Below, piece by piece: positions 11,481 to 31,222 of a stretch of 64,000 nt of DNA. The stretch's first letter is position 1; each line of letters begins with the position of its first letter. The notes beneath the pieces were generated by a model. That model was not told the origin of the DNA and did not search any database. It worked only from the letters and a program-made list of their open reading frames with translations. The translations under genes and the position numbers were made by a program. This DNA is from Cladopsammia gracilis (lineage: Eukaryota > Cnidaria > Anthozoa > Scleractinia > Dendrophylliidae), in assembly GCA_022457155.1 (NCBI GenBank), contig JAJGOT010000597.1:124001-188000 (forward strand). The letters run 5' to 3'.

Positions 11481-11652
11481 CAACTTCTCTGTACAGCATT
11501 GGGGGATCTGTTCTCATCAGTGCTCCACTTTTTCAAGACCAAAAGCCAGAATAGTCCTCAACTTCGACGACTAAGGAGAGCTTTTTTCACAAGATTTGGT
11601 GCCGTTTTTTCACCACAAGCAAGAAAGCGTCTGGTAACCATCTGTCTTCGCT

Positions 11653-12146: not shown

Positions 12147-12429
12147 AGTAGTGATATATTTGAATGTTTAAAAGCACTTTTTTTGCGTTCTTTTTCCTTT
12201 ATTTTTGTATTTTAAAAATTAAAAAATTTTAAAAATTTTTCAACCCATAAATTTATATTATTTTCTTGCGTATCCCTGTCAATTTTTTTAGATTTTAAAG
12301 GGAAAATCAAGACCTGATTATTTCCGAGATCTTTTTGTATTATTAAAGAAATTTACGAGTAAATTTCAGTTTTTTTAAAAGGTAAATAAACATAAATTAT
12401 ACGGACAGATCTTGATTGTTGGTACATTT
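12147..12429 (+). repeat. Left TIR of outer element, distal part
   Basis: It matches the reverse complement of the right TIR end (48326-48608) nearly base for base, apart from a 5-bp gap near the tip and a few substitutions. It is cut at 12429/12430 by the inner element and continues at 29874. Its first ~130 bases recur inverted at 30157-30285, so each TIR is itself bordered by inverted copies of the tip. Confidence 0.92.
12425..12429. repeat. Target-site duplication, inner element, left
   Basis: CATTT precedes the inner tip AGTAGTATAAGG and is repeated at 29869-29873 after the opposite tip. Comparison with the uninterrupted site in the right TIR shows that exactly five bases are duplicated, one fewer than the usual six. 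Confidence 0.85.
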
Positions 12430-12643
12430 AGTAGTATAAGGTGAGGGGGCAGATGACCACTTAACAAAATAAGGCTCCATCGATAGTGGTGAATGCCTAT
12501 TTCCCCAATTAGTGATATCACCTACAGGCCTTCTTTCAGTCGGCCTGCAGGTTATATCACTAATTGGGGAAATAGGCATTCACCACTACCGATGGAGCCT
12601 TATTTTGTTAAGTGAGTCATCTGCCCCCTCACCTTATACTACT
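12430..12643. repeat. Palindromic tip of inner element, left
   Basis: The first 214 bp form a near-perfect foldback: AGTAGTATAAGGTGAGGGGG at the outside returns inverted at 12643. The two ~100-bp arms have a handful of mismatches and a central loop of about 11 nt (TTCTTTCAGTC). The same palindrome, base for base, lies at 29655-29868. Extruded as a cruciform, each end would present the terminal motif twice. Confidence 0.93.
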
Positions 12644-12796
12644 GGGGTCTTTTGTTTTACTCCACGAGGCTTATTTAAACCCTAGAACCAGCTTAAACCA
12701 CTAATAACCAGTTTTAACTGCCCGAAAGCGGTTTCAACCACCCAGCCCCTTTATTTGGTGCAACCCTCCATAATCGGTTTTAACACTAGAAAGCAC
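12644..12796 (+). repeat. Left TIR of inner element, proximal part
   Basis: This part continues the TIR inside the palindrome and matches the reverse complement of 29501-29654. The two ends are identical to 12773 and diverge after that. It is rich in TAAACC/GGTTTA-like blocks, which may be bound by replication or packaging factors. No gene is seen before 12877. Confidence 0.85.
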
Positions 12797-12876
12797 CTAA
12801 TAAACCGTTATTTGAACAACTGGGGGCTGCGTTATTACTAATTGGAGAAACACATCTCTTGGGTACCTAAGCGGCA

Positions 12877-13110
12877 ATGGGGAGAGGAAGAAATAGCGTT
12901 CGGACACAATCAAGTAAACGAATGGCCTTTAATTTCTCAAGACATGGAAGTGACAGTTTTTTGTGCTGTAGCAGCAGAAAAGGGAAATCGTATGAATGCA
13001 TTATAGTAATCGAAGGGCAACCATTTCCTCCAGACATTGTACCAACATATATTCTTGAAGCAGCACAAAGACTAACTCCACAACAACTTGCCACCCTCAT
13101 CACCAATTGA
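12877..13110 (+). CDS. Unrecognised small protein (77 aa)
   Basis: This is the first gene after the left TIR of the inner element. The N-terminus is basic (GRGR...KR) with a short CC pair, followed by a mixed beta/alpha C-terminal half that ends in a Leu/Thr-rich helix. I recognise no family. The stop lies 30 bases before the next ATG (13140), suggesting co-transcription with the nuclease gene. A fold as a small DNA-binding protein is possible but is only a guess. Confidence 0.5.
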   Translation: MGRGRNSVRTQSSKRMAFNFSRHGSDSFLCCSSRKGKSYECIIVIEGQPFPPDIVPTYILEAAQRLTPQQLATLITN

Positions 13111-13139
13111 AAAAAACGCTTTCACCTTGTATATTTGCG

Positions 13140-14233
13140 ATGCCTGTGCAAAATTTCTTGAACTTTCTTAAGTCCAGGAAAACTGGTCTGAAACAAAGGA
13201 GCCGCGCTTGGGTCAGCGCCAGAAAGAGCACTATCGGGGCTTCAGAAGTTGCCGCGCTGATAGGGGCTTCGCCCTTTGAAGACGAAAAGAGTCTTTTTTT
13301 CAAGAAAGCGCATGCACAAGACATGGTCAGCATGACGGCATGTACCTGGGGCAACATTTTCGAGCCAATCGCACGAAAATGTTTTGAACAAAAAACATGA
13401 CACAACCGTCTTTGCCCACAGTGTATCGCTTAATCTGGCAAAGGAGCACCCCCTTTATGGAAAGCTTACATGCAGCCCTGATGGCTACTTCGAAGACAAA
13501 GCTGGCAACATTACTCTCTTAGAGTTTAAATGCCCATTTAAACGAAAGATAGCCGTTAGAGCCATTCCGCGCTACTATGTGACACAACTTCAGACAGGTC
13601 TCGCTTTCAGCGGAAGCCAAGTAAAAAAGGGCCTTTTCGTTGACTCCTATTTCAGACTGTGCCCTTTGAAACAGATGACATCAAGCACGTTTCATAACGC
13701 GAGGCTAAACGGAGGTGTTGTTCATTCAACAAAGGCAAATAAAACACTTGCCTGGGGCATTGTTTACCTCTTCTCTAAGCAATTTTTGACAAAAAAAACA
13801 AACTGAGCTCGTTGATGTCGCTGAACTTGCGCAGCCACAGTTTGATAAAATAATGGCAAGCATCGAGGAGAAAGAGCTCTGATGTTCTTACGGTCCTGTT
13901 AGAAGAACTTTTAGCGAGGAAATTGAGCGAGAGGAGTTCTTTAGACGACAGAAATTCAAGAGCGAGCTAACCACTAGTGCCGAGGGTCCAAGAGCTGTTG
14001 CCTTCTTTACTTGGAAGCTACTTGATGAAACAGAACTTTCAATCACCCAGCACGAGGGATTCTTAGAAGGCATTCAAGAAAGGGCCGAAAATTTTCACAA
14101 GAAGTTAGCTGAACTTAAAAAAAAAATTCATTCACTTATCCATACAGAGGACAAAATAACTTCCGCGGGAGAAGTTGGCGAAAATGAAGGCGACGTCGAG
14201 GCCTTTCTTCAGGGGCAGTTTATGCAATTCTAG
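13140..14233 (+). pseudogene. YqaJ/lambda-exonuclease-type viral nuclease, broken
   Basis: The coding signal passes through three frames, 13140-13400, 13384-13804 and 13805-14233, with a further in-frame TGA at 13880-13882. Visible family features are an N-terminal SR..W...R...IGASE.A.LIG block, a W.G..FEPIA segment, then SPDGY (the aspartate) and LEFKCP (the ExK pair), followed by a Gln-rich helix. These are the PD-(D/E)xK core of YqaJ-like recombination nucleases, which resect DNA ends in many large DNA viruses. The C-terminal third is helical and acidic. Both frameshifts sit in or beside A runs of 6-8, so sequencing error is an alternative to decay. The ATG at 13140 follows a TATATTTGCG motif. 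Confidence 0.65.
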
Positions 14234-14957
14234 CTGAACGCATGGCCGCTTGCCAGCGCCGCTCATACTTTCGACATGTAGATGCCCTAGGAAGCTGTAT
14301 GTAAGATAAAATCTCCCATTTTCTTGGCCCTTCTTGCATGATCAGGGTTAAGATTTTATAAATTTTAAAATTTATAGAAACATTCCCTGGTAGATGTGGT
14401 TTTATATTTGAGTGAGCATATTTTGTTTGTTCAAGCTCGTCCTTAGTCAATCTTATAGAGGATTTTCCGAATAACTGGCCAAGTCTATAGTTAAAGTTAT
14501 AGTCTATTTTTGCCTTGCTTTTAACTGTTATATTTTCATTTTTGTAAAGGGCTGCCTTATCAAAGGCGGCGCCATCAATTATTTCAACTCGGTTGCATAG
14601 TTCACAGATAAGTTCCGCTGAAGCAACCAGGAGTGAAAAAGACACGCCACATCTTTGGCATGATTTTATTTTTTCGTTTGTTATGCTTTGAATTGAAACA
14701 AACTTATTTTTATGGTACTGCTTTATTAAGCCTTGTTTTGCTGACGAAGAAAGATATGAAAAGATAATTTGTAACTCTTCTTTAAGTTTTGAGCGGTATA
14801 ACTCGTCTATATAGTCATTTTCATAGAGGCCCCGCAGCCAGATGTGTTTGTGTTCAACATCTAAGGCATCTAATTGTGTCTTATATTTATTCCTTTTATC
14901 CATTTGTCTGACAATAGATAGCTGTTTATTGAAACTGTTTGCTTCAAGGCTTTCCAT
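14220..14957 (-). CDS. VLTF3-like late transcription factor (zinc ribbon)
   Basis: A protein of about 245 residues with an N-terminal helical part, a C-x2-C ... C-x2-C zinc ribbon in the middle (SCQRCGVSFS...CELCNR) and a C-terminal helical region rich in Ile, Tyr and Leu. This order fits the poxvirus VLTF3/A2L family found in many Polintons and giant viruses, where it drives late viral promoters. Similarity to the outer VLTF3-like gene (42506-43042) is only in architecture. I chose the ATG at 14957 because a TATTATAAC motif lies immediately before it. The gene overlaps the end of the nuclease pseudogene tail to tail by 14 bases. Confidence 0.55.
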   Translation of the reverse strand: MESLEANSFNKQLSIVRQMDKRNKYKTQLDALDVEHKHIWLRGLYENDYIDELYRSKLKEELQIIFSYLSSSAKQGLIKQYHKNKFVSIQSITNEKIKSCQRCGVSFSLLVASAELICELCNRVEIIDGAAFDKAALYKNENITVKSKAKIDYNFNYRLGQLFGKSSIRLTKDELEQTKYAHSNIKPHLPGNVSINFKIYKILTLIMQEGPRKWEILSYIQLPRASTCRKYERRWQAAMRSARIA

Positions 14958-14980
14958 GTTATAATACAAATAATAAATGT

Positions 14981-15214
14981 TCAATACGAACTCAATTTTG
15001 CACTACAAAGATTACAAACTTCGGTGCACCCACCCGGTTCTTCTTTCGCGCACCGCGTTTTACAATCCTGGCAAAGGAGGCTGTGGCGCAGGGCCATATA
15101 TTTCTGGTAAAGCTCGTAGTGGTTTATTTTCAGTGTAACATACTTCTGTTCAAGATTGGCATAGCGTTTGTTTGCAGCTTGAAGCAATGTGATTAATTCC
15201 TTTAGCAAAGGCAT
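14981..15214 (-). CDS. Small Cys-rich protein (77 aa), unrecognised
   Basis: An N-terminal coiled-coil-like helix is followed by a compact Cys cluster (C-x2-C, C, C, C-x2-C within 30 residues) that could bind one or two zinc ions. The start is preceded by a TATATATAGGAGCA element at the usual distance for this element. It stands just upstream of the VLTF3-like gene on the same strand, so a regulatory role is conceivable, but no family is recognised. Confidence 0.5.
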   Translation of the reverse strand: MPLLKELITLLQAANKRYANLEQKYVTLKINHYELYQKYMALRHSLLCQDCKTRCAKEEPGGCTEVCNLCSAKLSSY

Positions 15215-15266
15215 TGCTCCTATATATATTGTTTTCCTTTCGAGATTTGTAGATTAAACCCAGAGT

Positions 15267-15941
15267 TTATTCTTTCAAATCTGACTTGGACACAGCGGCA
15301 AGACGATTTAATTTTTTTTGGAACTCAACTTTGACTTCTTTGCGGAGTTCTTCTCTGATTTTGTCAAGATCTGGCGCTTGAGGTTGTCCACCCTGTGTGG
15401 GCTTTGTTTCACCAGAGCGTATCACGTCTTTCAGTTTGTTGTATTTTTCAACCTCTTTTATGATAATCGTAAACTCCATATCGTCGATGTTCTTGTCAGT
15501 TAAAGCCTTTGAGATCATCTCATAGACAGAGTTCCGTTTGGCAACAGCGAGCGTATAGATTTTCTCGTGTTTTGCGATTTTTCGTTCAAATTTCTTGCTT
15601 AACACTGTGAGGGCTGCAGAGGAGGCCCCCGTAATCGCTGCCACACCAGCAAGGGCAGGACTGGCAACAATTCCGACTCCAGATAAAGCAGTCGCGAAAG
15701 TGGCCGAAGACATGCCTGTAGCCACCAAACCAAGGCCCACAGCCGCTGCGTGAAGAATCGAGTGGGCCCGTTTGTATTTCTTTGCGACCTGGCGGTAGTG
15801 GTCGGCTTCTTTTTCAAGCTCTTTCTGTAAGTCTGTTATTTTCTTGAGCCGGAAGTCTTCGCCATTTGCTGGTAAGCTTGGGTAAAGCGATTGAGTCTCA
15901 CTGTAATCCGGTGCCGATGGCAACACATTAGCTGAGCTCAT
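15267..15941 (-). CDS. Virion/membrane-type protein with Ala-Gly-rich hydrophobic centre (224 aa)
   Basis: The N-terminus is proline- and serine-rich, then comes a charged coiled coil (about residues 30-62). A long Ala/Gly/Val-rich hydrophobic stretch follows (about 63-112), then a second charged helical region and a PQAP linker. A shorter protein of similar plan lies at 30688-31020 in the outer element. The layout suits a membrane-interacting structural protein. The ATG follows a TATACACAACC motif. Exact role unknown. Confidence 0.55.
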   Translation of the reverse strand: MSSANVLPSAPDYSETQSLYPSLPANGEDFRLKKITDLQKELEKEADHYRQVAKKYKRAHSILHAAAVGLGLVATGMSSATFATALSGVGIVASPALAGVAAITGASSAALTVLSKKFERKIAKHEKIYTLAVAKRNSVYEMISKALTDKNIDDMEFTIIIKEVEKYNKLKDVIRSGETKPTQGGQPQAPDLDKIREELRKEVKVEFQKKLNRLAAVSKSDLKE

Positions 15942-15956
15942 GGTTGTGTATACATA

Positions 15957-16631
15957 TTAATTTATTTCAACTTCAAATTCAAGAGTCGCGTGATTGAAAT
16001 CAAAAAGTTCGTTGTTCGCATCTCTCACAGACAGAGTTATGCTGTTTACATAATCGCCAGAAGAGACGTCACGCAAGATGTTCTGCTGTGTTGATTCATA
16101 GAAAACTTTCTCATATGGCTTTCCACGAAGATCAAATTTAGCCAAGACTGTCGAAGGCTTGCCATTGAACAGGTTCTGTTCTTTATCAACCAGATCGCAG
16201 TGGATAAAGTAAGTGCTTGGTGAGTCGAATTTTTTACTGGTTATATGTGGAGGCGTTTGTAGACCCTTGCCAAATAATAATCTGATATTATTGGAAAGAC
16301 CTATTGCATATTCACCTCCTGGGTTCAAAATCGCCATAGCACCAAGAGGAGAATACGATTCCGCTTTAAGGTCTATAACCCGTTCTTTGTATTTGTCAAC
16401 TATCGTTTTTGCTAAACTACTAGGAGTGTAAAAACTAGGCTCAATGTTGATTATAGTTGGTTGGGCCTTCGAGCCTGATACTTTGACAGATATTTCTCCT
16501 CTTTGTTTCAAATTATGCCACGAATTGCAAATCGAACAAGAAACGAGCCTGATATAGCTAGGTTTCTGAAGCGGGTTATCGAAGTAGATGGTGTGAGGGT
16601 TCGAAGGCGCGACGATTGTTAACACAACCAT
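15957..16631 (-). CDS. Penton-like (minor capsid) protein
   Basis: A beta-rich protein of about 224 residues. An early LVSCSICNSWHNL stretch resembles the conserved strand of the single-jelly-roll penton proteins of Polintons, and a matching ASWHNI block occurs in the outer penton at 36912-37673. The start at 16631 is preferred over the upstream in-frame ATG at 16658, because TATATACACA lies immediately before it and matches the element's promoter motif. It diverges from the 466-aa gene across a 29-bp shared promoter. Confidence 0.55.
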   Translation of the reverse strand: MVVLTIVAPSNPHTIYFDNPLQKPSYIRLVSCSICNSWHNLKQRGEISVKVSGSKAQPTIINIEPSFYTPSSLAKTIVDKYKERVIDLKAESYSPLGAMAILNPGGEYAIGLSNNIRLLFGKGLQTPPHITSKKFDSPSTYFIHCDLVDKEQNLFNGKPSTVLAKFDLRGKPYEKVFYESTQQNILRDVSSGDYVNSITLSVRDANNELFDFNHATLEFEVEIN

Positions 16632-16660
16632 TGTGTATATAAATATATTTATATACAATC
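16632..16660. promoter_or_regulatory. Divergent promoter, symmetrical TATA motif
   Basis: The 29 bases between two divergent start codons form an imperfect palindrome. ATTGTGTATATAAATA on one side mirrors TATTTATATACAAT on the other, placing a TATATACA-like element next to each ATG. It is the clearest example of the inner element's start-proximal promoter. Confidence 0.7.
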
Positions 16661-18061
16661 ATGTTTGGCAGGCGCCCTGGCGGATTTAATCCTGGTTCAA
16701 ACCTTGGTCTAGATATTGGCGGGCACGATTACGGGCCCTCACCCCCGTTCTTTCCTCGCCCCCAAAACCCCCTCTATCCAGAACAAAGGTATATCAGTAA
16801 AAAAAAACCCACAGTAAACCCGCAACTGGCTTGGCTGAGTTCTCCGGAGGCCACAAAACTTGCTACAGCCGCCAAAGCGAAGGCAATCTCAGACTTCAAA
16901 AGGCGTTTCCCACACGCTGATATGTCAAGATTTACAACAGAAGTTTCTTTCGACGACAACCACAAAGCCACAGGAGAAGTGCTTTTCATAAAGGGCCCAG
17001 GCTCCTGGGCTATGCCCTCAGACATACCCCGCAAGGATTGGTCTCAAGCCATGAAAGAGGCTCTGGGTGTGCAGCAAGACGGCGGTTTTCCTGTCCCTTT
17101 GTCCATTAACAACAGCCCTACAAAAGCGATCCCGGCAGTCGCGTTCTCTGAAAATGTGGCAAGCATCGGCGATATCTTAAACAAAGAGCAAAAGATCTAT
17201 GTGACGCCAACAGAATCTTTTACAACAAAATTCAGGCAGCTTTTCACTCAGGCTCAAATCAAACACACAACAGGAAAAGAGTCAAGAAGGTGGCTTTCTA
17301 AGCCAAACATGAGTTACTGGCCACAGCAGCTGAACTTCGCCTTATGGTGTGCAACAACGGGCTCCGGGGTCTCCCGCGAGATATTATTATCCTCCAGCTA
17401 TCTAAACCTTGCCCCGCAGCTCCGATCTTTTTATCTCTTCCACGTTTATTTCACAACAAGGCGCATATTGTTTGAAATGGGGGGGATCCAGAGCAGCAGT
17501 GCTTTGCCAGGCGACCCCACATTTAGCCAAACAAATTACAACTATGACCTTGCCTCATATCACAGGATCTGTAACGAGTTCGGTGTTGACCCAAGCAGTG
17601 ATTTCCGCTTCAACCACGGCGCGAATCATGGCCTCGGCAATGTGTTTATCTATGTTTCACGAGGCGGCATGATATCCACCGGAATGGGCTATCCAGGTAA
17701 TCATGCGAAATTCAGTGACGAAGGTGGAAGTGCCAGTGATGGAAACCTTGTGCAGTTCATTCGCAACGACAGTGGCGCGGACAGACAGTTCGAACACTTC
17801 GTGCCAAACACATCGCAAGGCCTCACACAAGCAGGTCTCTCGCGGATGAACCAGTCAATAGAGGCCTTCGTCTACTGTATCCTAGGCGCGCAAGTCAACG
17901 TCCGTAGCAGTATTCTGGGCGCCGGTGGGCGGGCAAAGGAGGCGCAAACTGATTTTCTTGTCCTCATGGAAGACGCGATCAGAACGCCAGACATTTCAAA
18001 GAGCGTTCAAAGATATCAGCTAGCCATTGACGGAGCTAAGTGCGCCTTGACTTTGCTGTAG
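16661..18061 (+). CDS. Large conserved-looking protein of unknown function (466 aa)
   Basis: Residues 1-45 are Gly/Pro-rich and probably disordered. The rest is a mixed alpha/beta protein with a central aromatic block (W...P..S YWPQQLNFALWC) and a segment of FHVYFTTRRILFEM type. No nuclease, protease or ATPase motif is visible. I associate similar proteins with cnidarian Polintons, where they are uncharacterised. Its size, and its place among capsid genes, point to a structural or packaging role (inference). It is intact and starts directly after the divergent TATA promoter. Confidence 0.55.
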   Translation: MFGRRPGGFNPGSNLGLDIGGHDYGPSPPFFPRPQNPLYPEQRYISKKKPTVNPQLAWLSSPEATKLATAAKAKAISDFKRRFPHADMSRFTTEVSFDDNHKATGEVLFIKGPGSWAMPSDIPRKDWSQAMKEALGVQQDGGFPVPLSINNSPTKAIPAVAFSENVASIGDILNKEQKIYVTPTESFTTKFRQLFTQAQIKHTTGKESRRWLSKPNMSYWPQQLNFALWCATTGSGVSREILLSSSYLNLAPQLRSFYLFHVYFTTRRILFEMGGIQSSSALPGDPTFSQTNYNYDLASYHRICNEFGVDPSSDFRFNHGANHGLGNVFIYVSRGGMISTGMGYPGNHAKFSDEGGSASDGNLVQFIRNDSGADRQFEHFVPNTSQGLTQAGLSRMNQSIEAFVYCILGAQVNVRSSILGAGGRAKEAQTDFLVLMEDAIRTPDISKSVQRYQLAIDGAKCALTLL

Positions 18062-18078
18062 CCCCAGGATGTTGGCTA

Positions 18079-18450
18079 ATGCCCTCGCGCATGGTGATCA
18101 ACACAGAAAGTGTGGTGGGGTACAATAACAAGCTGAAGCAGGCAACGCAAGGGATGCAGCTGGGTGTGAACAACAATGTCAACCTGGAGACAAAAAAGGC
18201 CTCCCTGCGCCCCATGGACGGTGGCCCAACAAAGATTAATCCGCCAAACAGCCACCCAGCGAACCCAATTCACAAACAGGCGGCACAGGCACAGGGCACC
18301 GCGCCCAAGCCAGCCCCCACGCCAGCACCAGAGACAACACCACAACCAACGCAAGAGACAACACCAAAGATCGAGCCGCATCACGTAAACAAGGCACTAA
18401 TTGCTGGGGGCGCTCTTGTTTTAGCGGGCTTGTTTATCTGGATGCGTTAA
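18079..18450 (+). CDS. Pro/Thr-rich protein with C-terminal membrane anchor (123 aa)
   Basis: The N-terminal third is polar. The centre is a Pro-Ala-Thr-Gln-rich linker, and the last 20 residues form one hydrophobic helix ending WMR, typical of a tail anchor. The first ATG (18079) lies 18 bases after the preceding stop with no TATA motif in between, so it may be read from the upstream mRNA. Its stop overlaps the end of the opposing coiled-coil gene by four bases. Family unknown. Confidence 0.5.
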   Translation: MPSRMVINTESVVGYNNKLKQATQGMQLGVNNNVNLETKKASLRPMDGGPTKINPPNSHPANPIHKQAAQAQGTAPKPAPTPAPETTPQPTQETTPKIEPHHVNKALIAGGALVLAGLFIWMR

Positions 18451-19916
18451 CGCTTGCGCTTGATTGTCTTTTCAACCAAGAAAGCCACAACGGCAAGGAT
18501 CAGAAGCCAGGCATGCTCGCCAAGAAAGGATAAGACCTGGCCGGCCGTTTTGAAGATAAAGCTCACGATCGAGCCGATCATGCCTGGCAGGGCGTTGGCT
18601 GCTTTTTTGCCAAGTTCTTTAAGCCCATTTCCAATAGCCTTGGTAGCCTTTGCCAGACCATTCAAGGTGGTGAGTACCACAGCGCTGATGACAATACCGG
18701 CAGCCAGAACAACTGCTTGAAGGGTCCAGCCATATTTCTTGAAGATATTTTTGACCCTCTCTCTCAAAGACATGCCCCTTTCACGCACCTCAATTTCTGT
18801 GTTGACCCTTGCTAACTCTTCTTCACGTTCAGCAACCCGGGCTTCCGCGGCTTCTCTTTCAGAGGGAGAAGTGTTCTCATCCTCTATGACGCGCTTGTCT
18901 TCAGCGTTCTGCCGTTCAAGCTCTTCTTTGTTCTGTTTCAGTTCGTCCAGCGATTTCACAGCGTCCTGTTTTCCTCTAAGCTCCTCTCGGCGTCTTTCTA
19001 ATCCCCTACTGTCAAGATTTAGTTTGTCGATTTGTTTTTTTAGTTCGTCTGCTTGTTGAGCAGCTTTTTGCTTCTTGTCTAGTTCTTTTCGTTTAGCTTG
19101 AATCTCAGCTTCCTGAACTCTCTTTTCATTTTTTAGTCTTTGTATTGTCTCCGTATCCAGTGGACCATGTGCATCTTCCTTCTCTTGAATCTGGTCATCA
19201 ATATCTTTGATTATATTTTTGCGGGCATCTATATCGCGGCGAAGTTTTTGTGCATCCACAGCCATTTGGTCCACTTGTTGTAATTTATTTTGTTTTGCTT
19301 CCTGTTCTTTTTGAATTGCTTCAAATGCAGCATTTGTCTCATTGAGCTCTTCAGTCACAGACTTTCCGAGAGCAGCTTTGATCTCTTTGGGAAGCGAAGC
19401 GTTGAGAGTCTTTTCGGAAGCCCCACGGCTTCTTGTGTAAAGAGGATACCATTTGTCTCTGTTATGATATTTTACCTCGATGATGGCCCCACCTGATTTT
19501 GGTTTCGCCTCGTACCGAAAATTAAGTCGATTTCTGTCTGCGCTGGTAAACTCGGTCTTAACCTCTTCAAAGGCCATATCATCCATTGTTAACAAGTGCC
19601 GGCCTTGAGTATCCCCTGTAATGAAAGAGGTTTCATCAGTGCGGGAGCCTTGTTGTTCTGGGGGCAACCGTGTTCTTGGGATCATAGGCACTTGTTCACC
19701 AGATGGTGTGGAAGCAGCCCCTAGTTTAAAGGGGTTCGTGGTGTCGGGGGAAAGGCCTTTCAAGGCGTCGAGCCATTCTTGTTGTTCTTCTTTTGACATT
19801 TGATTCCACATGGTGTTAAAGCTCTCAGCATCAGCATCATCGTCATCTCCTGTGTCTGTGATGAGAGGGGTTCTGTCAGTTTCCTCGCCAGGTATATCAT
19901 AACCTACTTCTGCCAT
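18447..19916 (-). CDS. Coiled-coil protein with C-terminal membrane helices (489 aa)
   Basis: An acidic N-terminus (DDDDAD) is followed by a folded part up to about residue 190, then a long charged coiled coil (about 190-380, rich in E, K, Q and R). The C-terminal ~100 residues carry two strongly hydrophobic helices and end KTIKRKR. This could be a fibre- or membrane-associated virion protein (inference); no family is recognised. It diverges from the major capsid gene over a 29-bp TATA-rich spacer, so the two are likely co-regulated late genes. Confidence 0.55.
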   Translation of the reverse strand: MAEVGYDIPGEETDRTPLITDTGDDDDADAESFNTMWNQMSKEEQQEWLDALKGLSPDTTNPFKLGAASTPSGEQVPMIPRTRLPPEQQGSRTDETSFITGDTQGRHLLTMDDMAFEEVKTEFTSADRNRLNFRYEAKPKSGGAIIEVKYHNRDKWYPLYTRSRGASEKTLNASLPKEIKAALGKSVTEELNETNAAFEAIQKEQEAKQNKLQQVDQMAVDAQKLRRDIDARKNIIKDIDDQIQEKEDAHGPLDTETIQRLKNEKRVQEAEIQAKRKELDKKQKAAQQADELKKQIDKLNLDSRGLERRREELRGKQDAVKSLDELKQNKEELERQNAEDKRVIEDENTSPSEREAAEARVAEREEELARVNTEIEVRERGMSLRERVKNIFKKYGWTLQAVVLAAGIVISAVVLTTLNGLAKATKAIGNGLKELGKKAANALPGMIGSIVSFIFKTAGQVLSFLGEHAWLLILAVVAFLVEKTIKRKR

Positions 19917-19945
19917 GATGATATATAAATATAAAATTTATATAT
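19917..19945. promoter_or_regulatory. Divergent promoter of coiled-coil and capsid genes
   Basis: A 29-bp spacer with ATATATAAATA facing one start codon and ATTTATATAT facing the other. It has the same length and mirrored layout as 16632-16660. Confidence 0.65.
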
Positions 19946-21196: not shown

Positions 21197-21202
21197 ATAT
21201 AG

Positions 21203-22044: not shown

Positions 22045-22054
22045 TATATACACG

Positions 22055-22261
22055 ATGGCAACAACCCTTGTAGACAATGATATGCCACCTGAAGTGATTC
22101 TGTTTATACAGGAAGCGTTTACTATGGACGAATCTAAGTCGAAAGAGCATCTAATTGGCTACATTCAGTTTCTGGAGACTATTTGTCGGATGTTTGACGA
22201 AGCATTTACAAAACAAATGTATACACAATGTCTACAACTCCGGGAGACGAGGCCGCAATGA
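22055..22261 (+). CDS. Small acidic helical protein (68 aa), unrecognised
   Basis: The ATG at 22055 follows TATATACACG directly and is preferred over upstream non-ATG starts. The protein is helical and acidic with no visible motif. Its 3' end overlaps the next gene by 34 bases in another frame, and the next gene's own TATACACA motif lies inside this one. Confidence 0.5.
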   Translation: MATTLVDNDMPPEVILFIQEAFTMDESKSKEHLIGYIQFLETICRMFDEAFTKQMYTQCLQLRETRPQ

Positions 22262-22836
22262 ATGAAATCATGCAGATGCTGGAGTCAGACCCTGATAGCT
22301 CCTTGCCATCAGCGATGCCTGAAGTCTTAACGGGTCCAGACACTCAAGCTCAACGTGAGAAACTAGCAGTCCTTGTTTCAACAGGCAAATCAAAAGAGGC
22401 CATCGGGACCCAGCTCACACATGAGCAGGTTAAGCGACTGACAGATAAGGAGGTTGAAAAATTCTACAAAAGATATGAAGCCTATGTCGGTAACAAGACA
22501 ACCGAGTCTCTGATTGACAGCTTCATAATGCTCGTAACCAAAGGCGCCGGCATGGTTGTTGATATTGACGACGTGAAGGCCCTGCAGAAAGAACTCAAAA
22601 ATGACTACATGATTCAACATGAACTGTCATCTCTTGCTGGAGGCCTGGCACTGCGATTTGGGCGATTATTGGCCTTGGCCAATGCTGCTTTGATCACTAC
22701 AAAACACATCGACTTCAAAAAGGAGTCTCCACCCGCTCACCCAAGCAGCAGGGACAGTGAAGGCTACCCCCTGGAGGGCTTTGATGAAGTTGGCGGACCA
22801 CGAAGGAACCATGAAGGAACCATGAAGGAACCATGA
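22228..22836 (+). CDS. Unknown protein (202 aa) with tail running into a minisatellite
   Basis: The start follows ATGTATACACA. Residues 1-50 are acidic and probably flexible. The middle is helical with an Ala/Gly/Leu-rich segment near residues 135-155 that may touch a membrane. The last ~12 codons are derived from an 11-bp tandem repeat, so the C-terminus has probably been altered by repeat expansion. No family is recognised. Confidence 0.5.
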   Translation: MSTTPGDEAAMNEIMQMLESDPDSSLPSAMPEVLTGPDTQAQREKLAVLVSTGKSKEAIGTQLTHEQVKRLTDKEVEKFYKRYEAYVGNKTTESLIDSFIMLVTKGAGMVVDIDDVKALQKELKNDYMIQHELSSLAGGLALRFGRLLALANAALITTKHIDFKKESPPAHPSSRDSEGYPLEGFDEVGGPRRNHEGTMKEP

Positions 22837-22857
22837 AGGAACCATGAAGGAACCACA
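22799..22857 (+). repeat. 11-bp tandem repeat (GAAGGAACCAT), five units
   Basis: There are five consecutive units, the last ending in C, covering the end of the 202-aa gene and its 3' flank. Since 11 is not a multiple of three, changes in copy number shift the reading frame and move the stop codon. Confidence 0.9.
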
Positions 22858-22883
22858 CAGGTTTAAAATAAAATATATACACG

Positions 22884-23285
22884 ATGGCGCAACCGCTCGA
22901 GACGATCCCTGAAGAAAAAGCCGCTCCTACATCCACACACGTAACCTCTGATATCCCAAAGACTGCTCCGGCTAAAAACCCTGGCCGTGTTGCTTCTGGA
23001 AAAGCCTTGGCTGAACGAAAACGTCTGGCAAAAGAGGCAAAAAAACAAGCCAGCCAGGCAGACGAGCCTGCTCCAAACGAGACGCCGACAAAGGCAGAAT
23101 CTAGCAGCAACACTGTTCTCATCCTTGGTGTTGGAGGTTTGATTGTCTCCGCTTTGGGTGTTTTTTACCAGCGCGAGGCCATTATGAATGCCCTTGGGCG
23201 CAATAAGACACCACCACCAGAAGCAGCAGAGGCCCCTCCACCAACACAGAGGCCACCAAGACGAAGAATTCGAGAGATGGAATAA
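22884..23285 (+). CDS. Single-pass membrane protein, Pro-rich (133 aa)
   Basis: An acidic/Pro N-terminus is followed by a basic segment with KRLAKEAKK (about residues 40-60), one hydrophobic helix (about 73-93) and a Pro-rich, Arg-rich tail. The start follows TATATACACG. This layout suits a virion membrane protein or DNA-contacting minor protein. No homolog is recognised. Confidence 0.5.
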   Translation: MAQPLETIPEEKAAPTSTHVTSDIPKTAPAKNPGRVASGKALAERKRLAKEAKKQASQADEPAPNETPTKAESSSNTVLILGVGGLIVSALGVFYQREAIMNALGRNKTPPPEAAEAPPPTQRPPRRRIREME

Positions 23286-23306
23286 AAAAAAACTTATATG
23301 TATACC

Positions 23307-23633
23307 ATGCGGACTCACGACTTTGTAAACTTTATTGGCGGGGCTGCCACCGGTTTTCTTTGGGGTTGCACTACCTACATCTTCCTCAGCACAATTAACA
23401 ATGCATGGAAGAAACGCGATGAAAAGTTAATTGCTGCACACAATGTGAAAGAACGAATAGAACTAAAACTTTCTGAGTATGATGAGATGCGAAGAGAAAG
23501 GGCATTTGCTGAGTATGAAGAGCGAAGACAAAGGGAACTTGCTGCACACGATGAAGAGATAAGACAGCGGGCACTTGAGTTTTACAAAAAACTCTGTGAA
23601 GACGAGAGTGAAGACAAGAAACAAAAAGCATAA
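23307..23633 (+). CDS. Membrane helix plus coiled coil (108 aa)
   Basis: I prefer the ATG at 23307 (after ATGTATACC) over the in-frame one at 23298. An N-terminal hydrophobic segment (about residues 5-28) leads into a long charged coiled coil with repeating ER/EE patterns. It is part of a run of five small genes with the same start-proximal motif. Role unknown; probably structural. Confidence 0.5.
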   Translation: MRTHDFVNFIGGAATGFLWGCTTYIFLSTINNAWKKRDEKLIAAHNVKERIELKLSEYDEMRRERAFAEYEERRQRELAAHDEEIRQRALEFYKKLCEDESEDKKQKA

Positions 23634-23642
23634 ATATACACC

Positions 23643-23864
23643 ATGTCTGACAACAAGCTCGTGAAATATGTTCTCGATGCTGCCACAATTACTGGCCTTG
23701 TCGCCGGTATTGGCTGGATTGGCAAGAAAATCATCAAAGAAAACCTCACAGCTGACCCCAGCGCGAGTCTTATGAATTACATCAAGTTCGTAGCTGCCAC
23801 GACTGGGAGCCTCGCGCTCAAGAATTACCTCGAGGACCAGAAAATCCTCCCTTCCACGGTATAA
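23643..23864 (+). CDS. Small membrane protein (73 aa)
   Basis: A short hydrophobic Gly/Ala/Ile helix near residues 13-33 is followed by an amphipathic part and a second mildly hydrophobic stretch. The start follows AAATATACACC. No family name can be given. The frame is intact and tightly packed between its neighbours (9 and 11 bases). Confidence 0.5.
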   Translation: MSDNKLVKYVLDAATITGLVAGIGWIGKKIIKENLTADPSASLMNYIKFVAATTGSLALKNYLEDQKILPSTV

Positions 23865-23875
23865 TTATATACAAG

Positions 23876-24304
23876 ATGGCCTCAATCGCTCTCATGGTTG
23901 GTGGAGCAATTCTCAACGCAGCCGCTTTCACTGGCGGTAATTATCTTGCAAAATACTTGTCTGGCGACAGTGGGAAAGCCGCTATGGATGAAAAGATCAG
24001 GCACGATAAAGCGTTAGAAGCCTATCAAGCGGCCTACGCCAAATATCAGAAAGACCGCACGAAGCTCCTCGACTGGATTGCAACCAACGATCGGATCAAA
24101 GATCAAGCGAAAAAGAACTTTCAAGACACTGACCAAGCTCTAGTGCTCTACAACCAAACACATCGGGAGCACCAAATAACGCTCCCCAAAGAGCCAGAGT
24201 TCTCTGACTTCTATAAGCCGGGCCCTCAGCAGAAGCAAGGCGAACTCTTGTTTATCGGTACTGGTGCACTCGCCCTTGGCTATGCAGCGTTTCGCTTTCT
24301 GTAA
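23876..24304 (+). CDS. Two-helix membrane protein with coiled-coil middle (142 aa)
   Basis: An N-terminal Ala/Gly hydrophobic helix (about residues 3-28), a charged coiled-coil middle (about 38-95) and a C-terminal hydrophobic helix ending in FRFL. I associate this plan with recurrent uncharacterised Polinton genes in cnidarians. The start follows TATATACAAG. Likely a virion component (inference). Confidence 0.55.
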   Translation: MASIALMVGGAILNAAAFTGGNYLAKYLSGDSGKAAMDEKIRHDKALEAYQAAYAKYQKDRTKLLDWIATNDRIKDQAKKNFQDTDQALVLYNQTHREHQITLPKEPEFSDFYKPGPQQKQGELLFIGTGALALGYAAFRFL

Positions 24305-24363
24305 AAAATCGGCAAGGGGCGGCATAACCAATTGAAGAAACCCCTTCCCTTGGTATATACAAC

Positions 24364-24606
24364 ATGTCTAAGACCTGTGCGAAGGCAAAGTTACCAGACT
24401 TCTCAGAAATGTCTAATCGCTTTATCTATAAAAGCATCGAAGACATTGTTGATTCATTTCATGAATGTATTCAACTTTTTGAAGAAATTGCAAATAGCGA
24501 TTATGCAACTCCATCGGAAAAATATAAAGCTTCAAAAGCTATACGAAAATTTGCTTTTGCCCGTAATCATCTCATTGACATGATGATGCAACTAGAAGAA
24601 CAATAA
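24364..24606 (+). CDS. Small helical protein (80 aa), unrecognised
   Basis: A fully helical, soluble-looking protein. The start follows TATATACAAC. No motif is recognised. It sits between the virion-type genes and the integrase on the same strand. Confidence 0.5.
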   Translation: MSKTCAKAKLPDFSEMSNRFIYKSIEDIVDSFHECIQLFEEIANSDYATPSEKYKASKAIRKFAFARNHLIDMMMQLEEQ

Positions 24607-24625
24607 CTGCTTAAATATATACACA

Positions 24626-25614
24626 ATGGACTCCAAACTCTCTAAAATCTATTACGGACCCAAAGGATACTGGAAAGGTCTTGCCGCTATAAAAAAGCTA
24701 GCTGCAGCAGCCAAGGTCTCAGAAGAGGCGGCAAAGAAATGGCTTGTCAAACAAGCCCTTTGGCAAATATATCTCCCTGCGCCACGCCACATCCCTAGGC
24801 CTAAGTTTGATGTCTTCACACCCAATTCAGTGCATCAAGCAGATCTACTTTTTTTGCCACACGACAAACTGCCTCATGGGCGAAAGGTTTACAAATATGC
24901 TTTGACAGTTGTTGATGTAGCAAGCCGTTACAAAGCAGCAGAGCCCCTGAGTTCGAAAGAGTCTGATGAAGTTTCGAAAGCGCTGGCCCGGATATACAGG
25001 CGCGGGCCTTTGAAATGGCCACAACTGTTACAAGTCGATCCGGGAACAGAGTTTATGGGAGCTGTGACTAAAGAGACTGGAGCCCATAAACAACCATTCG
25101 CCGTGGACGCGTTGATATCCACAGAGATCAAGGGATTGTTGAAAGATTCAACAGAACCCTGGCTGAACGATTGTTTGGTTACCAATATGCAGTTGAAATG
25201 AATCTGCCCTCTGGCCGGTCGACTGCTTGGGTTAAAAGATTGCCAGATGTTATCTCGGCCTTGAACAATGAAGTAACAAGATTGACTGGCAAGAAGCCTT
25301 CACAAGCAATCAAAGAGAAAGCCACCTCAGCCAAGCCAGCGACCCCATATTTGAGACCAGTGGGGGCAAAGGAGCAGAAGCTTCCACCTCGGGTTAATTT
25401 GCGATATCTGTATTACCCAGGTGAGCTAGAAGGTGGTGGCAAGCGCGCGACGGATCCGATCTGGTCTTTGAAGGTCTACAACATTGAAAGAGTTGTCACC
25501 AAGCCAGATGCGCCCGTGGTGTATTACCTCTACGATGGGCCCAAGCGGGGCTTCGTTCGCGAGGAGTTGATGGTTGTGCCGCCAGGCACTCAGTTGCCAC
25601 CAGCTGGATTGTGA
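24626..25614 (+). pseudogene. INT: Retrovirus-type DDE integrase, one frameshift
   Basis: The N-terminal frame (24626-25201) carries a helical DNA-binding part and the first two catalytic residues, in the HQADLLF and VDPGTEF contexts. The third acidic residue (VERFN context) is read only in the frame that continues to 25614. That frame also carries a C-terminal SH3-like/R-rich part with a LRYLYYPGEL strand. The frame change lies near 25085-25095, next to an A run, and fits a 1-nt loss. The integrase inserts the element and makes the short target duplication. Start after TATATACACA. It converges with the polymerase gene, overlapping its end by about 25 bases. Confidence 0.85.
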
Positions 25615-28600
25615 AACTCGATTGGTTCTGTGTGAATGCCGTCAGGCAACACCCAGCGCTTGTCGTAATAAGCGGAAAGACCTAGCTTACGCTGTTCGTA
25701 CGTGTACATGGCGCCCTCGTGCATTCGAAAGCCTCTGTTGACTGCCATGTCTTTGAACCCATCGAGGGCTCGCTCGTATCTTTGCCAGTGGAGCTCGTTC
25801 TGCTTCTTGTTGACGCCCTTGGAGGACATCTTGGCCTGTCCGCTAGCCTCATCTTCTACGTAATAGCACTTGCTGCACAGAGCGATGGCTCGTGTACCTT
25901 CTTTTTCAAGCTTGAACAGGCCAGGCTCTCTGTTGCTCCACTTGTCCCAAGAGAGCCACTTATGTTTCTCCCTTTCAAACTGCTTGGCGAGCTCTGGTCG
26001 AACTGCCTCTTCTAGAGTGTCGTGCGCAAGAGCGAAGTACATGCTGTCCGTGTCCATCTGGATTAGCTCGAAGTCACGCCTGTCGAGATAGTGGTCGAGG
26101 AACTCGTAGTAGAACTGCAGCATGCGCAGCTTGGCGAGTTGGTAGACTACGATACCGACTTGAAAGGGGCGGTTTATCGTTATCTTGGTTTTGCGCAACT
26201 CGAGCTTGTATGCGGCCCCGATGTCTTCGATGTCTTCGAACCAGGCGGAGCGCAGATGCTTGTCGACCTCGTCCTCGTCGCGGGTGTACACCACTTTCGT
26301 CTGGCGCTCGACAGCCTCGATGAACTTACCGTAAGCCGAGTTGCCCAGAAGCTTGAACACTTCTGCGAGCAAGGCTTTCTCTTTGTCAGCGTCGCCTTTC
26401 CTCCGGTTGTCTGCAACCTCCCGGACGAACCAGTCGAAGACCTTGATGGGTGTATAGTCGAGCGTGCGGTAGACCGCGGTTACTTCGAGTCCGTGGTTGT
26501 AGAGCCACTCCAGCACGGGGGCGTAGAGCAACACCCTTTTGGCCTGGAGCACGCCGAGCAGCTTCTTTTGTTCGGGCAACGGAGTTCTGTTGCTTTGTGC
26601 TAGGTACTCCTTCATGTGCTGTGGTACGCCCGCCTCACCAACGCACGTGTTGATGAAGAGCGGAGGGAATTCTTCGTACTGCTCCCACAGATGGCGGGGG
26701 ACTTCGATGTCGACCTCGGCGAACCCGAACCACTGGCCCGTCACAAGCCGGGTGATGAAGGGGGCAGCAGCCTGTTCGGGGTTCTCGTAGTGAAAGACCC
26801 TCTCTTTGCCGCAGGGCATTTTTTGCAGCATGGTGCTGGGGTACAGAGAGTTGGCATCGAAGCCGAGAATGCGCTTCACGGGGCGCGCCAAGTCGTATCG
26901 GTGCGAGCGGATGCGGGTCTCGCCGGCTACGTGCTTGCGGGTGAACACAAGACTGGGGCCACCGACCACCGCGTCCTTCAGCATTGCGTAGGCCTCGGGG
27001 CCTGGGGCATAGAGGGGCGGCCGCTTTTTCTTGGGGACCCCCAAGGTCCCGCGCAGGATGTATTGCATGCTGACCCCGGGCAAGGAGACTGCGTCTTTGA
27101 AAATGTCGACCCCAAGCCCAGTATAGAAGGCTTTCATTTTCTCGAGCGCTTCGAGGAATGGGGCAACATCGAGGTTGTTGTAATATTGCAGCCAGTCACC
27201 GAAGGTCTTCATCCCGCGCTCTTTGAAGACCTGTTTGCATTGCTTGTACTCGTCTGGAGTGAGTGTGAAGCAGTTTCGGAGTTGAGAGTACCAACACCAG
27301 TAAGGCGGGAGGCCCTTGTAGTCGAGTTTGTCGGCGCTGTCGAACCACTCATACGGGAGCCACGATTTGGTCTGGTTCGCGCCGTATGTCTTCACCCATT
27401 TGTCGTACGTGATGCCTGGGGCGAGATAGTTGATTATGTCAAGGAACTTGAAGGAGGGCGTGTTGATGAACATGATTTGTCTTTGTTTCTCGCCAGCGAA
27501 GACCCCCGCTCTCTTGCCCGAGGTGTTCGACGAAGTGGCGGCGGATAAGGTGCAGGTCGTAGCGGCCAGAGTTGAAGCCGACTACGGGGACCTGCTCGCA
27601 CCATTGTTTGATGAGCCCCTTTTGGGCCTCTGTTAGCCCCTCAAGATCTGGAGGCATATAGCGCCTGGCTATGTCCTCTCGGATTGCGTTGCCGCGGCGC
27701 ACCAGAGATTGATAAAACAGCCGGATGAGCTCTTTGGGGTCTTTGGAGCAGATGTACTCAGGCTCGGGCTCTAGGGTGTCCGCGATGGCGACTGAGATAG
27801 GCACGTGCTCGCTTTCGTAAGAGAGATCCCTGGTCGGCTGACTTGCCTTGGTCTTGTCTTGATAGGCTTCGAAGTCGTAGACTATGGCATGTGGATACGT
27901 TTCGTTTCGTTTAGGTGGGGCTCGAGCGTGCCACCAAGGGGCGGGGTGCTCGTGCTCCCACCGCTCAACTAGATTATAGCCGGGCATCGTGCGGATCTCG
28001 TGACTGAATTTCATTGTTTTGGCGAAGGCTTGCTCCCGGGTGATTGGGTTTCCTTGCCTGTCAGTTTTGATTGCTTCGTCCCTTTGTTCGGGCGCGGGGA
28101 AACAATGGCGGCAGCCGTGCCAGTGACAGCCGTGGAACTGGAACACGGTCTTGCTCTCTGGGTGGTAGCCGTCAACCTTGTAGCCCACGATTGTGCGCTC
28201 GCCGCCGTGGCCGCATCTGTGGTGGTGGATGTGGATGCCCCGTTGCTTGGCCTCATATTCGAGCCAACAGAGCGCGCGGATACCAAAATTGGCTTCTGGA
28301 TAAAAGGCCTTCTCGAAAGCCGACTCCGGAGCAAGAATCTGGTTTCCGGGGCAGGAAATCTTGGTTTCGCCGCGAGTGCATGTCTTGGCGTGGCGGGCTA
28401 GATTATCGACCCGTGCGAACCTAGCCCCACACTCACCACAAGCGTAGTTGTTTGTGACTTTATTGATGTCGGTGATCAGAAAGGCGTGTGAGTCATAGAT
28501 GCCGAGTGTCATCACTGGTGAGTTGGGGGTAACTTTGTCATAATGTGAGGGTGTGTAGCTAAGAACGAAGTTGTCGTCATCTGTAACAGTGTAAACCGCA

Positions 28601-29412
28601 ATGCCCTGTTTAAAGTGTCGTTCAAGCAAAGGAAACTTTTTAAAGGGCACAAGATTGCCAGCCGTCCGAGCCTGCTGCTGAGCGTCGAAGAAGCTTTGCG
28701 CTAACGCTCGAGCTCTTTGAGTACACCGACTCCAACGGCCGCCTTGATGAACTGCCAAGCACCGAAAGATGCAAAGATCGTCGTTGAAGGTGTCAAGGGC
28801 TCTAACGTGGTGCTTGTTGCGAAGCCAGTCAGGCAGCCTACCAAGACCGAGCAACAGAGGTTGTCTGTCTAAGATCACTTTGAGTTCAACGGAAACGGCG
28901 GCTTCGAAGCTCCATTTAGTGTTAGGGCGTTCGATGTGTTCACCTTGAAGGCGAAGCTCTTCTCGTTGTTGCAGCCATCGTTTCGTCTCTGAGAGCTTAG
29001 TAAACCAGGGGCTGTTAAAGTTTGAGTACCAAACGATAGTCTCGCCATTTTCGATGTTTCGTAATCTGTACCCATAAGAGATGTCAGCTTTATGCCTTCT
29101 ACGAACCTCTTGTTTGATGCGGTTCATCATTTGGGGAACAAGGGGTTTTGTGAGACCCTGAGTGAAGCTCCATTTAGCTGTTCGCTGCACTCGACCGGGC
29201 CGGCCTTGTTGGCCCCGTTCACCAGGCGCATAGAGTTCAACAATCCGAGTAGGGAGTTGAAAGTCCCTCAGACGTTGTCGGTCTAACGGATCAAACCCTG
29301 CAAGAGCCTCGTTGTGAGGAGCCTTTACAAAGGGTTTTCTTTCTTGCATGTTAAGCCAGTCATTCAACTCCCGCCGACTGATGTCTTTAAACACGTTCAG
29401 TGCCCACACCAT
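25590..29412 (-). pseudogene. PolB: Protein-primed DNA polymerase B, one frameshift
   Basis: Two abutting frames (29412-27439 and 27473-25590) form one gene of roughly 1,270 codons. The first frame carries a C2H2-like finger (CGECGARF...HAKTC), a GCHWHGC segment and the exonuclease motifs YDFEAYQ and GFNSGRYDLHL. The second carries polymerase motif A (DANSLYPS), motif B (LLGNSAYG) and motif C (DTDS). The frame changes near 27515-27525 within a G run. The family replicates linear genomes by protein priming from the TIR tips. The start codon lies directly after CTATATAT. Otherwise the gene looks complete. Confidence 0.9.
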
Positions 29413-29500
29413 ATATATAGAGGTTATAAACGTAGACCAGCAAGGTCAGTTTATGCAAGGGGGGCTACTCTGTTCAATTGGTAAAGCCCGAGCCTTTAGT

Positions 29501-29868
29501 GTGCTTTCTGGTGGTTAAAACCGGTTATGGAGGGTTGCACCAAATAAAGGGGCTGGGTGGTTGAAACCGCTTTCGGGCAGTTAAAACTGGTTATTAGTGG
29601 TTTAAGCTGGTTCTAGGGTTTAAATAAGCCTCGTGGAGTAAAACAAAAGACCCCAGTAGTATAAGGTGAGGGGGCAGATGACTCACTTAACAAAATAAGG
29701 CTCCATCGGTAGTGGTGAATGCCTATTTCCCCAATTAGTGATATAACCTGCAGGCCGACTGAAAGAAGGCCTGTAGGTGATATCACTAATTGGGGAAATA
29801 GGCATTCACCACTATCGATGGAGCCTTATTTTGTTAAGTGGTCATCTGCCCCCTCACCTTATACTACT
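29501..29868 (-). repeat. Right TIR of inner element
   Basis: This is the inverted copy of 12430-12796, identical over its terminal 344 bases. The terminal 214 bases (29655-29868) are the same palindrome as at the left end. Between the polymerase start and this TIR (29413-29500) nothing else is seen. Confidence 0.93.
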
Positions 29869-29873
29869 CATTT
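29869..29873. repeat. Target-site duplication, inner element, right
   Basis: CATTT directly follows the tip ACTACT; it pairs with 12425-12429. Confidence 0.85.
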
Positions 29874-31020: not shown

Positions 31021-31028
31021 AATATAAT

Positions 31029-31208: not shown

Positions 31209-31222
31209 TTTATTTATAATGT

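What the first reader, a model, noticed from the sequence alone, without database searches (positions are those of the whole stretch)
12425..29873. A second Polinton nested inside the TIR of the first, with the empty site preserved in the other TIR
The inner element cuts the left TIR at 12429/12430, and the sequence resumes at 29874. The right TIR still holds GGTACATTTTC (reverse complement near 48325-48345), giving an internal record of the pre-insertion site. The order of events is therefore certain: outer first, inner later.
Basis: seen in the sequence. Interest (0 to 1): 0.9.

Follow-up and report, generated by a model that had tools for sequence, protein, structure and literature searches.

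The report
Polinton nested inside another Polinton's TIR
One virus-like transposon has jumped into the end repeat of a second one, whose other end still shows the untouched target; such nesting is ordinary where these elements are common, but both kinds carry odd fold-back ends whose two arms change together.

Summary
Confirmed. A 17,439-bp Polinton (12430-29868) sits in the left terminal inverted repeat (TIR) of a second, AT-rich Polinton (12147-48608), flanked by the 5-bp duplication CATTT. Joined flanks minus one CATTT match the uninterrupted right TIR, 62 of 62 nt. The outer element (duplication CCTTGT) itself interrupts a CCHC-type ORF: three levels.

The nest itself looks ordinary. Both families have many candidate copies in the 878-Mb genome. 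Of 24 inner-family copies examined, 3 (window included) lie in AT-rich Polintons, at different sites. Scored inner and outer capsid loci co-occur about as chance predicts (1 seen, 1.3 expected); target preference is unproven, not excluded.

Unexpected are the ends. In both families each TIR read holds a self-inverted unit, AGTAGT outside and ACTACT inside: a palindrome in the inner family (40 of 40 TIRs), 132-bp arms in the outer (5 elements). Arms change in concert: with one TIR per copy, the inner family's first 20 nt differ 0/480 within copies but 12% between copies; near the loop concert is lost. Proposed: terminal fold-back copying of a linear form; rival: selection on both tips. The paper searches made listed no such report.

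The parts
12147..48608 (.). outer, AT-rich Polinton including its insert; 19,018 bp without the insert and one CATTT
   Evidence: ends AGTAGT/ACTACT and TIRs; relatives with TIRs about 19 kb apart
12141..12146 (+). left CCTTGT, target duplication of the outer element
48609..48614 (+). right CCTTGT, target duplication of the outer element
12147..12429 (+). outer left TIR, first part (ends with one CATTT)
29874..30285 (+). outer left TIR, second part
47920..48608 (-). outer right TIR, uninterrupted; a unit with inverted arms of about 130 nt at its two edges
48329..48339 (-). empty site GGTACATTTTC in the right TIR
12430..29868 (.). inner Polinton, 17,439 bp
12425..12429 (+). left CATTT, target duplication of the inner element
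29869..29873 (+). right CATTT, target duplication of the inner element
12430..12784 (+). inner left TIR (355 bp)
29514..29868 (-). inner right TIR (355 bp, 1 mismatch to the left)
12430..12643 (+). 214-bp terminal palindrome, AGTAGT...ACTACT, of the inner left TIR
   Evidence: (DNA fold -113.4 kcal/mol, shuffles -21.1)
29655..29868 (-). the same palindrome in the inner right TIR
13336..13806 (+). inner: YqaJ-like nuclease piece; its likely beginning lies in another frame (13059-13400)
   Evidence: Pfam YqaJ 7.5e-07, above cut-off; frames
19946..21196 (+). inner: probable major capsid protein (label inferred from position and recalled features; no Pfam hit)
   Evidence: 1842 relatives with E up to 0.001, 120 listed; no Pfam hit
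21203..21808 (+). inner: A32-type packaging ATPase
   Evidence: Pfam Pox_A32 2.7e-14
24626..25614 (+). inner: retroviral-type integrase in two overlapping frames (24626-25201 and 25090-25614)
   Evidence: rve 1.5e-06, 28.8 bits, under the cut-off of 32.6; frames
25590..29412 (-). inner: family-B DNA polymerase in two overlapping frames (25590-27473 and 27439-29412)
   Evidence: DNA_pol_B_2 1.1e-15 on 25590-27473; frames
33140..33688 (-). outer: A32-type packaging ATPase
   Evidence: Pox_A32 1.2e-08
35090..36433 (-). outer: probable major capsid gene, cut by an in-frame stop (pieces 35627-36433 and 35090-35626)
   Evidence: frames; weak DJR-like hit, 15.2 bits against a cut-off of 27; open frame 275 aa here, about 436 aa in most scored relatives
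37679..38215 (-). outer: protease-like ORF (label recalled; no Pfam hit); its homologue is the gene hit at C1271
39381..39818 (+). outer: phospholipase-A2-like ORF
   Evidence: PF08398 3.2e-07
39944..40771 (+). outer: integrase with C-terminal chromodomain
   Evidence: rve 1.8e-11, Chromo 1.8e-07
40878..41627 (-). outer: DUF2738 protein
   Evidence: 3.2e-34
43209..46289 (-). outer: polymerase region in several frames (pieces 43209-43751, 43700-44944, 45104-45607 with endonuclease VII, 45438-46289)
   Evidence: frames; Endonuclease_7 1.2e-05; pieces match L062 where the inner PolB also matches
11638..12146 (+). left part of the CCHC-type ORF interrupted by the outer element
48615..48843 (+). 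right part of the CCHC-type ORF

Best explanation
An outer Polinton inserted into a CCHC-type ORF (6-bp duplication). Later a Polinton of another family inserted into the outer left TIR by a 5-bp staggered cut, leaving CATTT on both sides; the right TIR was not hit and keeps the old site. Shown: anatomy, duplications, empty site, order, relatives with the same ends. Inferred: that its own retroviral-type integrase did the cutting. In both families the TIR end is a fold-back unit with the terminal motif at both edges. I infer that in a linear replicating form the 3' end folds onto the inner arm and is recopied from it, so the arms stay alike most strictly at the tip (likelihood of this last part about 0.45; the confidence given is for the nest).
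For: Exact 62-nt empty site and CATTT. 5-bp duplications in the window and 12 other standard-ended inner copies, and in the C1091 mini element. Outer relatives C444 and C704 have 6-bp duplications. Outer length without insert, 19,018 bp, agrees with relatives. Outer flanks restore an open 245-aa frame with 76 relatives. Ends: self-inverted unit in 40 of 40 inner TIRs and in all 6 outer-family TIRs read from four relatives plus the window; 125 mirrored against 57 one-sided cells, 2342/2400 paired, shuffles at most 83 and 2260; arm mismatch 0/480 in nt 1-20 rising to 46/432 in nt 81-98.
Against: No reads seen. Integrase and polymerase of the inner copy are each split over two frames, so activity of this very copy is not shown. 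For the copying idea: with all 40 TIRs the tip count is 2/800, both in the right TIR of C489; the rise towards the loop is not even (27/480 in nt 41-60, 8/480 in 61-80); a 1-nt asymmetry inside the concerted zone is kept in 39 of 40 TIRs, which plain copying should erase; the window's own outer element has less regular arms (123 matches, 4 mismatches, 7 gap cells).
Confidence: 0.95

Rival explanations
1. Misassembly joined an inner Polinton from elsewhere into the outer TIR.
For: The inner TIR occurs many times in this genome (40 scored of 196 candidates), so misjoins are conceivable; reads were not available.
Against: Matching CATTT on both sides and exact continuation of the TIR; no N in the window; other copies have their own flanks and their own 5-bp duplications.
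Confidence: 0.03
2. The inner family prefers AT-rich Polintons as targets, rather than hitting them by chance.
For: 3 of 24 examined copies are nested in such Polintons; unlikely by chance if these fill about 1.5% of the genome (P = 0.006 at 700 copies; at 2488 copies 0.14 with 24 trials, 0.03 with 13 trials). Retrotransposons that prefer virophages are known (PMC8547959, passages).
Against: The window was chosen because it is nested; without it 2 of 23. Scored inner and outer capsid loci lie within 40 kb of each other once, the window, with 1.3 expected (100 of 1285 and 143 of 2488 candidates).
Confidence: 0.25
3. For the ends: selection keeps both tips of each unit alike because the integrase or a replication protein binds both; no copying is needed.
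For: Concert is strongest in the first 40 nt, the likely binding region; the asymmetric mark is kept in 39 of 40 TIRs; the motif AGTAGT/ACTACT stands at both edges.
Against: Several tip variants, each mirrored, would need repeated double changes; arms differ between copies more than the neighbouring TIR part (.084 and .074 against .044), unlike a conserved site.
Confidence: 0.35
4. For the ends: ordinary quasi-palindrome correction in the host chromosome makes the arms alike.
For: A recalled mutational process for imperfect palindromes (no call).
Against: I would expect it to act near the loop at least as much as at the tip; concert is strongest at the tip. In the copies read at both ends the two TIRs, about 17-20 kb apart, carry the same tip variants, C489 being a partial exception.
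Confidence: 0.15

Closest known systems
Maverick/Polinton elements of vertebrates (PMC8097293; section 7 and passages seen)
   Same: Ends (AGT)2//(ACT)2; TIRs of hundreds of bp; size range; DNA polymerase B, integrase, packaging ATPase
   Different: Intact elements there have 6-bp duplications; the inner family here has 5 bp in 13 standard-ended copies. 5-6 bp is however given for mavirus and Maverick-Polintons in PMC8547959 (passage). The parts seen say nothing of self-inverted units in the TIRs.
Retrotransposons nested in virophages and Polinton-like viruses (PMC8547959 passages; PMC12220804 passages)
   Same: A mobile element inside a virus-like integrated element
   Different: There the guest is a retrotransposon; here it is another Polinton, and the empty site is kept in the same element's other TIR
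Foldback-like transposon Galileo (PMC3573991, abstract and passages)
   Same: Long, internally repetitive TIRs
   Different: P-element-type transposase; no Polinton genes
Parvovirus terminal hairpins (recalled, no call)
   Same: Palindromic ends that fold back and can serve as template for the end
   Different: Single-stranded DNA genome without integrase or polymerase B; both orientations occur, whereas here the asymmetric mark keeps one orientation in 39 of 40 TIRs and is symmetric in one

Membership tests
[quoted passage not shown]
   DNA_pol_B_2 1.1e-15; protein priming itself not tested; split over two frames
Polinton/Maverick (inner element) | Retroviral-type integrase | tested here: inconclusive
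   rve 1.5e-06 but under Pfam's cut-off
Polinton/Maverick (inner element) | Packaging ATPase | tested here: met
   Pox_A32 2.7e-14
Polinton/Maverick (inner element) | Double-jelly-roll capsid protein | not tested
   label inferred; structure prediction never ran
Polinton/Maverick (inner element) | TIRs with AGT-repeat ends and a 5-6-bp target duplication | tested here: met
Polinton/Maverick (outer element) | Integrase, packaging ATPase, TIRs, 6-bp duplication | tested here: met
Polinton/Maverick (outer element) | Family-B DNA polymerase | tested here: inconclusive
   no Pfam hit on the three polymerase-region pieces scanned; pieces match L062 where the inner PolB also matches, E 1.5e-30
Polinton/Maverick (outer element) | Double-jelly-roll capsid protein | tested here: inconclusive
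   DJR-like 15.2 bits, cut-off 27
Foldback-like elements | Internally repetitive TIRs with a P-type or no transposase | tested here: not met
   TIR trait present, but both elements carry Polinton-type genes

The most novel reading that the evidence does not exclude
These Polintons carry a built-in template for their own ends: each TIR holds an inverted inner copy of the terminus, and the linear virus-like genome restores or diversifies its tips by folding back and copying it, so that the four tips of an element change together and faster than the rest of the TIR. Two separate Polinton families in one host share this design.
Probability: 0.35. Interest if true: 0.75.

Novelty: new variant of a known kind. 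Interest (0 to 1): 0.5.

Why it matters
The nest is a clean, self-dated record of one Polinton hitting another, with its empty site in the same contig; where such elements are common, many such events are expected. The fold-back ends matter more. How Polintons keep and replicate their ends is, as far as I recall (no call), not known from direct observation. A natural series of mirrored end variants makes end copying and end recognition testable by sequence counts.

Tried and rejected
IMG/VR scans for the inner capsid-like protein and for the inner TIR tip confirmed no relative; the tool says near genomes may be left out. PDB sequence search with the PolB piece: no hit. PHROGs and NCBIfam added little. 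Solo palindromes were sought with a palindrome-only search (40 of 180 candidates scored): none was shown to be solo, though single hits were not all followed; one pair, C1091, is a 720-bp element of two TIRs nearly head to head. Target preference was tested by flanks and by co-location and not established. A flip of the palindrome as in parvoviruses was rejected on the conserved asymmetry. Paper searches on nested or palindromic/hairpin Polinton ends: 20 of 38 listed; 13 of 13; 15 of 65; 15 of 15; 10 of 21; on coral or cnidarian Polintons and adintoviruses. By title and abstract start none reports a Polinton in a Polinton or mirrored Polinton ends; full texts were mostly not read and subscription papers are not held.

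Rows dropped before counts: second copies of the duplicated C4 and C1158 loci and the second TIR of each pair; for C1271 the right TIR was used because the left has a deletion; C595 left out only. One search recounts all 40 TIRs.

Full report
What was checked. All three hold. The inner element runs 12430-29868 with CATTT on both sides (12425-12429, 29869-29873). The flanks minus one CATTT give 62 nt found exactly in the reverse complement of the right TIR. The inner TIRs differ at 1 of 355 positions, the outer TIRs by 4 substitutions and 2 indels over about 690. These rates do not differ (Fisher p = 0.67), so the order of events rests on the nesting itself.

What the two elements are. Inner: A32-type ATPase and family-B polymerase, a retroviral-type integrase just under Pfam's cut-off, a YqaJ-like nuclease piece, and a probable capsid protein with 1842 relatives in a large protein collection (the label is inferred, no Pfam hit). 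Polymerase, integrase and nuclease each lie in more than one frame in this copy; whether by mutation or sequencing error is open. Outer: AT-rich, with A32 ATPase, integrase plus chromodomain, phospholipase-A2-like and DUF2738 ORFs and an endonuclease VII piece. A probable capsid gene is cut by an in-frame stop. Polymerase-region pieces lie in several frames; they gave no Pfam polymerase hit but match L062 where the inner PolB also matches. The outer element's CCTTGT duplication lies in a CCHC-type ORF (name from its cysteine pattern, by eye): the flanks minus one copy give a 245-aa open frame with 76 relatives, the only named one from Porites evermanni. The nest has three levels.

The inner family elsewhere. 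The own genome (878 Mb, 1469 contigs) gave 40 scored TIR places of 196 candidates. I took 24 distinct copies: the window, 13 other pairs read at both ends (C215 among them) and 10 read at one end (identical-flank duplicates on C4 and on C1158 counted once each). Duplications are exactly 5 bp in the window and 12 other standard-ended pairs; C215, with slightly different ends, seems to have 6 bp. A 720-bp mini element on C1091 is two TIRs nearly head to head with a 5-bp duplication ACATT, so a TIR-only derivative has moved. In the outer family the two relatives with both ends held, C444 and C704, have 6-bp duplications.

Is nesting special? Tblastn of window proteins against flanks of the 24 copies (mostly 5 kb, 2.9 to 9 kb) showed two more nested cases. 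C1271 lies inside a protease-like gene of an AT-rich Polinton; a short join reads on in one frame. C597 lies between integrase and polymerase-region genes of another. That makes 3 of 24 counting the window, or 2 of 23 without it; 10 of the 24 were seen from one side only, and decayed hosts could be missed. First-look candidates number 2488 for the outer capsid gene (143 scored) and 1285 for the inner (100 scored). If all 2488 were 19-kb elements they would fill 5.4% of the genome, and 3 of 24 would be unremarkable (P = 0.14; with 13 trials P = 0.03); with 700 it would be unlikely (P = 0.006). The hosts at C1271 and C597 are distant from the window's outer element (capsid gene 27-32% identical), so such candidate counts may not include them. 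Scored inner and outer capsid loci lie within 40 kb of each other once, the window itself, where 1.3 are expected. Preference is neither shown nor excluded. A random control could not be fetched.

The ends. In the inner family the start of the TIR is a palindrome with AGTAGT at its outer and ACTACT at its inner edge, in 40 of 40 TIRs read; it is 214-216 bp in 39 and 203 bp in one with a deletion. It folds as DNA at -113.4 kcal/mol against a mean of -21.1 for shuffles. In the outer family the whole TIR is such a unit, with arms of about 130 nt around a middle of roughly 400-430 nt, in the window and in six TIRs of four relatives (fold). Tip variants are mirrored in both arms. Over 24 copies (one TIR each) there are 125 mirrored and 57 one-sided cells, and 2342 of 2400 cells are Watson-Crick pairs; re-dealing whole inner arms among copies 500 times gave at most 83 mirrored and 2260 paired, and at least 137 one-sided. 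Within a copy the arms mismatch 0/480 in nt 1-20, 2/480 in 21-40, 27/480 in 41-60, 8/480 in 61-80 and 46/432 in 81-98, against 12, 14, 10, 5 and 11% between copies for the outer arm. With all 40 TIRs the counts are 2/800, 3/800, 42/800, 17/800 and 86/720; the two tip mismatches are both in the right TIR of C489. The trend from tip to loop is thus clear but not even. Arm distances between copies correlate with each other (0.84) but hardly with the neighbouring part of the TIR (0.12), and arms diverge 1.7 to 1.9 times as much as that part (23 copies). In the outer family C605 and C444 (right TIRs) differ by 9 and 10 of 132 in the arms but by 1 mismatch and 1 gap in 404 in the middle, while the two arms within each of the six relatives' TIRs differ by 0 to 3 of 132; other relatives differ less in their arms (for example C444 and C704, 2 of 132), and the window's outer element is less regular (123 matches, 4 mismatches, 7 gap cells).

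Reading of the ends. Concert that is near perfect at the tip and lost at the loop fits copying that starts from the end: the 3' terminus of a linear replicating form folds onto the inner arm and is remade from it, and the two TIRs then share the result. Selection for a protein that binds both tips is a real rival, and a 1-nt asymmetry kept in 39 of 40 TIRs inside the concerted zone speaks against plain copying and against free flipping. The shuffles do not correct for relatedness among copies, so the number of independent mirrored changes is not known. None of this was tested in a living system.

Literature. Vertebrate Mavericks share the (AGT)2//(ACT)2 ends and, when intact, have 6-bp duplications (PMC8097293, section 7 and passages); 5-6 bp is given for mavirus and Maverick-Polintons (PMC8547959, passage). 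Retrotransposons nested in virophages and Polinton-like viruses are known (PMC8547959 and PMC12220804, passages). Galileo has internally repetitive TIRs (PMC3573991, abstract and passages). PMC10120064 and PMC6431247 were seen in passages only. The listings, some of them partial, show by title and abstract start no Polinton inside a Polinton and no mirrored palindromic Polinton ends. A paper on coral Polintons is recalled but was not seen.

Verdict. Observation and interpretation are right; the nest itself is an expected kind of event. The fold-back, concerted ends are the part worth following.

Noticed in passing
window 11638-12146 and 48615-48843: The outer element interrupts a CCHC-type ORF whose frame is open when the flanks are joined; 76 relatives.
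   Followed up: partly
G000:C333:103404-124787: Four outer-type capsid gene hits at a regular spacing of about 6,852 bp, as in a tandem array.
   Followed up: no
L045/L046 (C4) and L047/L048 (C1158): Two inner-family copies on one contig with 100% and 99.8% identical 500-nt left flanks: segmental duplication or assembly duplication.
   Followed up: no
L093 (C1091:568650-569570): 720-bp mini element made of two inner-family TIRs nearly head to head, 5-bp duplication ACATT.
   Followed up: partly
G000:C1072:721710-748032 and G000:C1435:78884-103637: Outer-family TIR pairs 26.3 and 24.8 kb apart where most pairs listed are about 19 kb apart: perhaps further insertions.
   Followed up: no
window 59524-63998: ORFs with a weak DUF5906 match (17.8 bits, cut-off 27.6) and a C2H2-like ORF near the right edge (by eye): perhaps remains of another mobile or viral element.
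   Followed up: no
window 11045-11480: 102-nt inverted repeat (96%), arms 232 nt apart, about 670 nt left of the outer element.
   Followed up: no
L054 (C595:559838-560285): An extra stretch of about 80 nt inside the TIR of an inner-family copy, with 14 nt of TIR repeated on both sides.
   Followed up: no
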